NCBI GenBank assembly: GCA_964036665.1
Contig: OZ038527.1
Location: 27,563,901 to 27,627,900 of the forward strand
Length of the DNA stretch: 64,000 nt
Source of the DNA: Gordius sp. MW1
Lineage: Eukaryota > Nematomorpha > Gordioida > Gordea > Gordiidae
Direction: 5' to 3'
Position 1 is the first letter of the stretch; every line of letters begins with the position of its first letter. Shown piece by piece: positions 19,401 to 22,400 of the stretch. The translations under genes and the position numbers were made by a program. The notes beneath the pieces are model-generated. The model had not been told where the DNA came from. It saw nothing but the letters and a program-made list of their open reading frames with translations, and made no database searches.

Positions 19401-22400
19401 TTTTCCTTAGTACAAGCATGAAATGTGAAATTATTATTATTTGAAAGATGTAATATGCGCTAATAAAGCACATCGGCCTTGCCTCCTTACCCAGTGCTTT
19501 ACACTAATAACATTACAATGAAAGCAATAAAATTAATTTATTTTAACTAGCGAATCAATTCAAAAAGTTGGACTCTTAATTTTCCCCATTACTAAGGAAT
19601 AAAATTTGTTAGCGCGGCTTAATTCTAGTGTTATCGCCCCGCCGGGTTTGTTTAATCTAAGAGATAAGACACTTGTCCGCCCATAAAATATATTCGCTCA
19701 CTGTTTGTCGTAGCTTAAAATTACTTTAGTAGGTTCTGTTACAAACAGCTGACTTGTTGAGTGATGTCGACGATTGCTGAGCGGTAGTGTTGTAAAAAGA
19801 CTTGGGTTTTGTAGACTAACGGTCGACTAAATAAAACCCAGCCCTTTTTACAACACTAATAAGCGGGCCAAAGTTATTTTGAGGCTACGAAGGAACTGCC
19901 CGTGGCTAATAATAATTGATTGTCGGACATGTTGGATTACCTGGGGGGGGGGAGAGATGATGTTTGAGCGGATTTTTTGGCCAACGTTCATATTAACATT
20001 CCGTGAGGGGAGGGGTTAAAAATAGTGATTTTATGGTAAAGGTAGCTGGAGCACTGTTAAATTAAAAAATCATAATAATAATTGAAAATTTTTGGGCATA
20101 TCATTTTTAGCCTTAACATTCTACTGAATTTTAACGAACGTAAAGAAAGGATTCCCTAAATTTGTTAAATATGCGAGTTAAGGGAGGGCGGGAAGTATGG
20201 TTTGCATTTATGTTGAAGCCTGTAGATCAGTGGTCAAACTTGTTAAATCCCGAACCCGGCTCGATCCGATTTTATAACGTTATCTCTCACCCGGCCCGCC
20301 CGAATCACTGACCGGCTCAAAAGGATGACTTTATAAATTTATAGTTTAATTACGTCAGATTTTTGCCAAAATTTTAATTTGATTCCCAAACTTTTTGGCC
20401 AAAAACTAGGCTTTATGCTTATGATACAACCAAATAAAAGGGCCCGCCCGACAATCTTAATTTTTATGTACATAATTCCACCTGTTATATTTATCATCTC
20501 GTTGAATGGTGTTTGCTGCTGTTAAGGGAATCGCAGTGTAACTTTTACGCGGCCCAAGTCGTCCTTTCCTTCGAATATTTACACTCACTCGACATCCTGT
20601 ACAGGGATCTCAAGCCAGAAAATATCATGATCGACCACACCGGCTACCTTAAGGTAAGTCCCACCCTCAACTCACTCCATTACAATTGTTCCCTAGCAGG
20701 CACGAAAATGGTGCTCGTACTTAATAGGAATTTTACCTTTTTTGAGCGTAGGGACCACCCCCTCAGGTTCCCCTTCCTTACTTTTGGTCTGTTTTTCATG
20801 GTCGACCTCGAGGCTTAGTCGAAATTTGGAAAACAGACCATAGGTTACCTAGTAAAACCATTGCTACTAATAAAAATCTAACTCGCGCAGCACCCCTGCA
20901 CTCTAACAAGCACAAGAATGATCGAGACGCTTTTCTCCCCCCCTACTTACTTTCACACATTTATAATTGACCTTCTTCTCTTACTCTTATTATTTCTCCT
21001 TTCACACATTATTACAACCCTGCTGCCTGAGATAGCGAGGCGCATTCCCGCTTTTACTCGGCTCAAATATTAGTAGCCTTAGAGTACTTGCATAGTCTGG
21101 AGATTGTTTACCGCGACCTCAAGCCAGAAAACCTGCTCATAACACTCCTCGGCTACATCAAAGTGAGCTAGCCTAATGTGACAATCTCAATCTTTCCAAG
21201 TCTATAGTCTAACTAAATATCTCTCGTTTGTGGGGCATTTTATTTTACCCTTATCGATAAAGCTCCTGAGCGGTAATCGAAGAATGTAGAATGTTTATAC
21301 GTTTTAAAACACAGCAAATTTGACGTTAATACTAAATAAATAGATAAAACAGCAAAAAACGAAATGCGTCGAATGGTGGTTAACATACTATTCCTATATA
21401 AAATCATGGATAGGATCTTCCAAACGTGGCCAAGAATCGGCAAACGATTTGTATTCGACGTTTAGGGACTTTTTATACCTAGTTTAGTGGGGGGACGTAT
21501 TGTTCAAGTCCATATTTGATGTAGCTAGAGAAAGCACCATTTTCGGCCATCACCTTTTGGCGAACGTGGCTCTAGTTTTATATAGATACACGCCTAGACT
21601 AATAATAATTATACAATAGTAGACTGGCGAACAGCTGATTTTTTCATTAAAACCCATTAAGTAACCTAGTCTGCCATTTTTGGTGAGAATTCCTTATTTA
21701 GCGCAGTTGTGCGATAAAAAATTACGAATGTTAGGGAAGGCAGAATAACGAGAATAATAAAACATTATCTTTTCCAGAGATTTAACGTTTAATCTTTAGT
21801 CATAATGCGAATAGCGTTTAGTCTCTAATATATGCCTCAGCCCACACCCCTTTAATGATCTCCTGTTCCCCAATCTATTGTATTATTAGTCTATGGATAC
21901 ACAACCTACCCACTAGTGTTGTAAAAAGGGCCGGGTTTTGTTTGGTCGACCTGGGGTTTAACCAAAACCGAAGGGGTCGATCAAAGAAAACCCAGCCCCG
22001 TTTTTACAACACGACTACTATTGACAGTAACTATACCCACTCATCACTCTCATTTATAGATTACTGACTTCGGTTTCGCCAAACGGGTCAAAGGTCGTAC
22101 TTGGACCCTGTGTGGCACCCCGGAGTATTTAGCTCCCGAAATTATTCTGAGCAAGGTAAAAATCCGGCTATATAAATCTTTAGCAAAAATCATAAAATCT
22201 TTCCTCCACCTTCGTTTTATTCCCTGATAGGGCTACAACAAAGCCGTAGATTGGTGGGCTTTCGGAGTTCTGGTATATGAAATGGCCGCTGGGTATCCAC
22301 CCTTTTTCGCCGACCAGCCCATTCAAATCTACGAAAAAATTGTGGCCGGCAAGGTTTATCTTTATTTATTGCATTTATTTACTTGTCTATTAATTAATTT

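What the first reader, a model, noticed from the sequence alone, without database searches (positions are those of the whole stretch)
20527..21162. Tandem duplicated, mutually exclusive catalytic-loop exons in PKA
Two exons of exactly 127 bp with identical entry and exit phases both encode the stretch from the end of helix D through the catalytic loop YRDLKPEN. Both are open and have good splice sites. Using both would shift the frame. They differ at many positions around the loop (ILYRD/IVYRD, LLID to LLIT) while all catalytic residues are kept. Swapping the catalytic loop itself would give two kinases with potentially different kinetics or substrate preference. I know of PKA variation in first exons, but not of this.
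Basis: partly seen in the sequence, partly recalled or inferred. Interest (0 to 1): 0.82.

Follow-up and report, generated by a model that had tools for sequence, protein, structure and literature searches.

The report
Swappable catalytic-loop exons in hairworm PKA
A hairworm-like genome carries two interchangeable versions of the exon that encodes the active-site loop of protein kinase A, an arrangement with a clear counterpart in molluscs; it looks real and old rather than a new invention.

Summary
The gene is a canonical PKA catalytic subunit. Two 127-nt exons, A (20527-20653) and B (21036-21162), share phases; either gives an intact 352-aa ORF, both or neither an early stop. They share 24 of 43 residues and keep YRDLKPEN. 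Exon A is 42/43 identical in a Gordionus (nematomorph) protein. Exon B, compared with the single exon 6 of a second PKA-C gene in the same genome, is as constrained (pN/pS 0.174) as neighbouring exons (0.177, 0.146), so it is not a decaying copy.

Mutually exclusive use is well supported but not unprecedented. Five mollusc gene models hold two versions of this segment in tandem, and three unnamed ORFs read through such a pair. Alternative splicing giving two Aplysia PKA catalytic subunits was published in 1988 (title only); that it concerns this exon is my recollection.

New here: a case in a nematomorph-like (ecdysozoan) genome, and weak hints that the pair is ancient (exon trees place A and B with different relatives, but a common A+B clade is not rejected). 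No transcripts were available. A and B differ at 19 positions, including 173 (Met/Leu).

The parts
13547..13592 (+). Alternative first coding exon, [15 protein letters not shown](V), canonical MGN-type PKA-C start
   Evidence: 46 nt, GT donor, phase fits exon 2; full ORF of 351 aa with either A or B
17119..17167 (+). Second candidate first coding exon, [16 protein letters not shown](I); tentative
   Evidence: ORF of 352 aa with either A or B; no homologue supports it
18459..18520 (+). PKA-C exon 2
   Evidence: GT/AG borders, homology
18604..18732 (+). PKA-C exon 3 (glycine-rich loop)
18993..19091 (+). PKA-C exon 4
19228..19310 (+). PKA-C exon 5; ends with the AG of the split codon
20527..20653 (+). 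Alternative exon 6[44 protein letters not shown] (first residue split with exon 5)
   Evidence: Open, donor AAG|GTAAGT; 42/43 aa identical to Gordionus P0004
21036..21162 (+). Alternative exon 6[44 protein letters not shown] (first residue split with exon 5)
   Evidence: Open, donor AAA|GTGAGC; pN/pS 0.174 against the paralogue's exon 6
22060..22155 (+). PKA-C exon 7 (DFG, activation loop)
22231..22353 (+). PKA-C exon 8
22437..22601 (+). PKA-C exon 9
23650..23775 (+). PKA-C exon 10, C-terminal EFTEF and stop

Best explanation
This is a PKA catalytic-subunit gene of a nematomorph-like animal in which coding exon 6 (PKA residues 139-181) exists as two tandem, mutually exclusive versions. Each productive mRNA uses A or B; messages with both or neither shift frame and stop early, so they would be degraded or give no kinase. 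With two candidate first exons the gene could make up to four full-length catalytic subunits. A and B keep the catalytic residues but differ in helix E, just before the catalytic loop and at position 173, so they probably tune ATP handling, stability or partner binding, perhaps by tissue. Shown: exon anatomy, frame logic, coding constraint on A and on B, tandem versions of the same segment elsewhere. Inferred: alternative splicing in this species, removal of aberrant messages, and a functional difference.
For: Exact length and phase match and ORF logic. Constraint: A is 42/43 identical in Gordionus, against 269/292 for the rest of the compared protein; B against the paralogue's exon 6 has pN/pS 0.174, against 0.177 and 0.146 in flanking exons (synonymous sites saturated). 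Five mollusc gene models (P0005 Pinctada, P0006 Mytilus coruscus, P0007 Mya, P0223 Mytilus edulis, P0225 Biomphalaria) hold two different versions in tandem. Dreissena isoforms X8 (P0037) and X1 (P0113), both on contigs listed as 152547682 bases, carry one version each. Three unnamed ENA ORFs (P0224, P0226, P0227) read through two versions with other sequence, presumably intron, between them. Prior report in Aplysia, by title.
Against: No RNA evidence for this genome. A search with exon B's own region listed 102 proteins of 114 candidates, none named as nematomorph; clustering at 90% could hide such an isoform (P0004 stands for 4 sequences on 1 contig). The one Gordionus sequence shown carries A. 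B has a weaker donor match (5 of 9) than A (8 of 9).
Confidence: 0.87

Rival explanations
1. One exon (most likely B) is a dead or rarely used copy and only A is spliced into mRNA.
For: The one Gordionus sequence shown carries A; B has the weaker donor match (5/9 against 8/9) and a long branch in the exon trees.
Against: B is open, keeps YRDLKPEN, and its divergence from the paralogue's exon is as constrained as that of the flanking exons.
Confidence: 0.08
2. The pair is mutually exclusive but arose by a duplication private to the nematomorph lineage, convergent with the mollusc pair (a rival about origin, not about how it works).
For: Holding A and B in one clade is not rejected (AU p 0.307; with the paralogue's exon p 0.188). 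The distinctive mollusc version is the downstream one (LEYLHHLDIMYRD), whereas A, the distinctive one here, is upstream. PMC9741552 (passages) reports convergent evolution of tandem exon pairs.
Against: In the free trees A groups with P0226_1 and P0045 (85/76; 90/77) and B with the paralogue's exon (84/93); P0226 and P0227 show the same order, RES-type first. B with the lophotrochozoan version is also not rejected (p 0.511, the constrained tree scoring 0.71 higher). All on 43 columns, so weak.
Confidence: 0.45
3. Assembly artefact: two alleles or two loci joined in tandem.
For: None found.
Against: The exons differ at 48 of 127 nt; the intron before A and the intron before B gave no alignment to each other; the genome search found one full-length match to this stretch, in an assembly of 211.8 Mb in 12 contigs.
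Confidence: 0.02

Closest known systems
Aplysia PKA catalytic subunits generated by alternative RNA splicing (Beushausen et al. 1988, Neuron 1:853-864)
   Same: By its title, two PKA catalytic subunits made by alternative RNA splicing. Recalled, not read: the swapped block is an internal cassette of about 42 residues at this position. A 1992 title reports two different N termini.
   Different: Mollusc, not nematomorph. None of the three Aplysia papers was held, so that it is the same exon is not checked.
Mollusc, brachiopod and annelid PKA-C with the [LM]EYLH.L[DE].MYRD version (31 of 315 collected proteins)
   Same: Same protein segment; five mollusc models hold two versions in tandem, and Dreissena has isoforms with one version each.
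   Different: Exon borders there are inferred from protein, not DNA. The distinctive version is downstream; here the distinctive one (A) is upstream. B did not group with that version in the free tree, though the grouping is not rejected.
FYN exon pair (PMC9741552, passages seen)
   Same: Tandem duplicated, mutually exclusive exons in a protein kinase that include ATP-binding residues.
   Different: Tyrosine kinase; SH2 linker and N-terminal part of the kinase domain, not the catalytic loop.

Membership tests
PKA catalytic subunit (PRKACA/PRKACB kind) | Full-length kinase with [42 protein letters not shown] and a C-terminal FTEF | tested here: met
PKA catalytic subunit (PRKACA/PRKACB kind) | Conserved core length: 350-residue protein, 335 residues from exons 2-10 | tested here: met
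   MGN form is 351 aa with Met, alignment to C-alpha without gaps over 339 residues; the 350 and 335 figures are from PMC3625193 (passages, section 8). Agreement of each exon length with human is recalled only
Mutually exclusive tandem duplicated exons | Homologous neighbouring exons with the same phases | tested here: met
Mutually exclusive tandem duplicated exons | Inclusion of both or neither destroys the frame | tested here: met
Mutually exclusive tandem duplicated exons | Each exon under coding constraint | tested here: met
Mutually exclusive tandem duplicated exons | Transcripts using each exon, and none stable with both | not testable with these tools
   No RNA-seq for this genome
Aplysia/mollusc PKA exon pair (common origin) | A and B group with the corresponding mollusc versions in an exon tree | tested here: inconclusive
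   43 columns; not grouped in the free trees, not rejected for B; Aplysia sequences themselves not compared

The most novel reading that the evidence does not exclude
One exon-6 duplication arose in the PKA-C gene before protostomes diversified and has been kept, for over 500 million years, in lineages leading to molluscs, annelids, brachiopods and nematomorphs, giving two catalytic cores from one gene; lineages such as nematodes and arthropods would then mostly have kept one version. In the nematomorph line a duplicate PKA-C gene kept only the B version, turning a splice choice into a gene choice.
Probability: 0.4. Interest if true: 0.7.

Novelty: new member of a known kind. Interest (0 to 1): 0.5.

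Why it matters
PKA is the prototype protein kinase and is usually described as one conserved core with variable N termini. Here the core itself is swapped, including position 173 (Met in A, Leu in B), which packs on ATP's adenine (recalled). If the pair is ancient, many invertebrates run two PKA cores from one gene, which matters for memory research in molluscs and for interpreting invertebrate PKA data.

Tried and rejected
Protein search with exon B's region alone: 102 proteins of 114 candidates, mostly other kinases, none named as nematomorph. Rfam and tRNA scans of the window gave nothing. RNA structure as the cause of exclusivity: palindromic repeats at 19785-19858 and 21914-22015 flank the pair and are 92% complementary over 38 nt, but pairing would loop out both exons together and the repeats look mobile (end motif 11 times in the window with up to 1 mismatch, 0.96 expected), so I claim no role. 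Crowding of splice sites is an unlikely cause: the intron between A and B is 382 nt. Paper searches for the Aplysia work gave only titles in reference lists.

Full report
What is there. The window is contig 1, 27563901-27627900, of a 211.8 Mb, 12-contig genome. The gene encodes a canonical PKA catalytic subunit; the best-matching solved chains are PKA C-alpha (E about 1e-196). The listed protein with the highest identity is P0004 from Gordionus (93% over 95%); leaving exon 6 out, the two group at 100/99 (36 rows) and 97/70 (19 rows). Gordionus is a nematomorph, so the source is probably one too; I did not identify the species.

The exon pair. A (20527-20653) and B (21036-21162) have 127 nt each, enter with two bases of the codon supplied by exon 5 and leave at a codon end. 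Either gives a complete ORF; both gives a stop after 202 residues and neither after 164. Donor matches to CAGGTAAGT are 8 of 9 for A and 5 of 9 for B; the nine other donors score 5 to 7.

Selection. A and B differ at 48 of 127 nt, 27 of them third positions; pS 0.746, pN 0.269, with dS near saturation. Random mutation almost never keeps the catalytic loop. A differs from Gordionus at 1 of 43 residues; the stretches before and after match at 107/123 and 162/169. For B the test is a second PKA-C gene in the same genome (contig 1, about 6.335-6.338 Mb; L039), whose exons 3-10 have the same lengths as here, with one 127-nt exon 6 (its first exons were not sought). B against this exon has pN/pS 0.174, A against it 0.223, the flanking exons 0.177 and 0.146; synonymous sites are saturated, so these are rough. 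B and the paralogue share LLIT where LLID is usual.

Relatives. Three searches gave 315 proteins (the best 120 of 7981, all 102, and the best 120 of 398). Of the 315, 31 carry the [LM]EYLH.L[DE].MYRD version, by name from bivalves, gastropods, Octopus, Lingula and the annelids Ridgeia and Lamellibrachia. Twelve of 315 contain two or more copies of the segment: five mollusc models with two different versions; three unnamed ENA ORFs (P0224, P0226, P0227) with two versions; and P0001, P0002, P0009 and P0025, which I judge to be mis-joined or repeated models. The lists are capped and clusters at 90% identity hide isoforms, so absence from nematodes and arthropods is not shown.

Trees. I chose 43 exon segments for and, for, 29 of these plus the paralogue's. 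With 43 columns most forks are unresolved. A and Gordionus A group with P0226_1 and P0045 at 85/76 and 90/77. In one search B, a long branch, falls among ordinary versions; it groups with the paralogue's exon at 84/93. Owenia lies with the A-like set but not. Holding A and B together is not rejected (p 0.307; with the paralogue's exon 0.188), nor is B with the lophotrochozoan version (p 0.511). With exon 6 removed, the window gene, the paralogue (a long branch) and Gordionus lie on one side of a branch (87/96, not starred). That the two exon types predate the gene duplication is the simplest reading, not a proven one.

Differences between isoforms. 19 of 43 residues differ: PKA positions 139, 141-144, 147, 150-154, 161, 163, 172, 173, 175-177 and 180; A matches human at 28 and B at 29 of 43. 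The role of position 173 is recalled, not tested.

Literature. Beushausen et al. 1988 was seen only as a title (PMC9531652, passages), the 1990 and 1992 Aplysia papers as titles in PMC12608923 (passages). PMC3625193 (passages, section 8) reports no more than one close PKA-C homologue in any invertebrate examined and calls the mollusc exon structure unknown at the time. Eight searches on PKA, Aplysia and exclusive exons listed no paper that I could see describing this exon pair; I judged most from listings alone.

First exons. An MGN-type first exon (13547-13592) fits exon 2, as does a second candidate at 17119-17167. Two N termini by two exon-6 choices resembles what I recall of Aplysia.

Verdict. 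Real, functional by sequence criteria, a new member of a known kind. Its age and its use in this animal are open.

Noticed in passing
L039 (contig 1, 6332500-6340500), exons 3-10 at 2981-5739: A second, faster-evolving PKA-C gene with the same exon lengths but a single exon 6; PMC3625193 reports only one close PKA-C homologue in each invertebrate it examined.
   Followed up: yes
window 19785-19858, 20780-20845, 21914-22015: Palindromic repeats in the introns around the exon pair; one search scored 39 other genomic matches, all to the middle one. The outer two could pair with each other.
   Followed up: partly
G000 C2:3972641-3973543, C2:21693072-21693719, C3:20754405-20754797, C1:3869159-3869461 and others: Further PKA-like kinase genes, 48-63% identical to the window protein over the matched part; the first has an open frame of 383 aa.
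   Followed up: partly
window 57582-60099 +: Retroelement pieces with aspartyl protease, reverse transcriptase, RNase H and integrase zinc-binding matches (Pfam).
   Followed up: no
window 26421-31042 -: Four stretches matching glucose-6-phosphate dehydrogenase on the minus strand (Pfam).
   Followed up: no
window 46228-46587 and 51326-51928 -: Two stretches matching Utp14, a ribosome-biogenesis protein (Pfam).
   Followed up: no
P0089, P0111 (unnamed JGI proteins): PKA whose core groups with nematodes (P0089: 96/90, 84/87) but whose exon-6 segment reads PENILFD, closer to the A-like set.
   Followed up: partly
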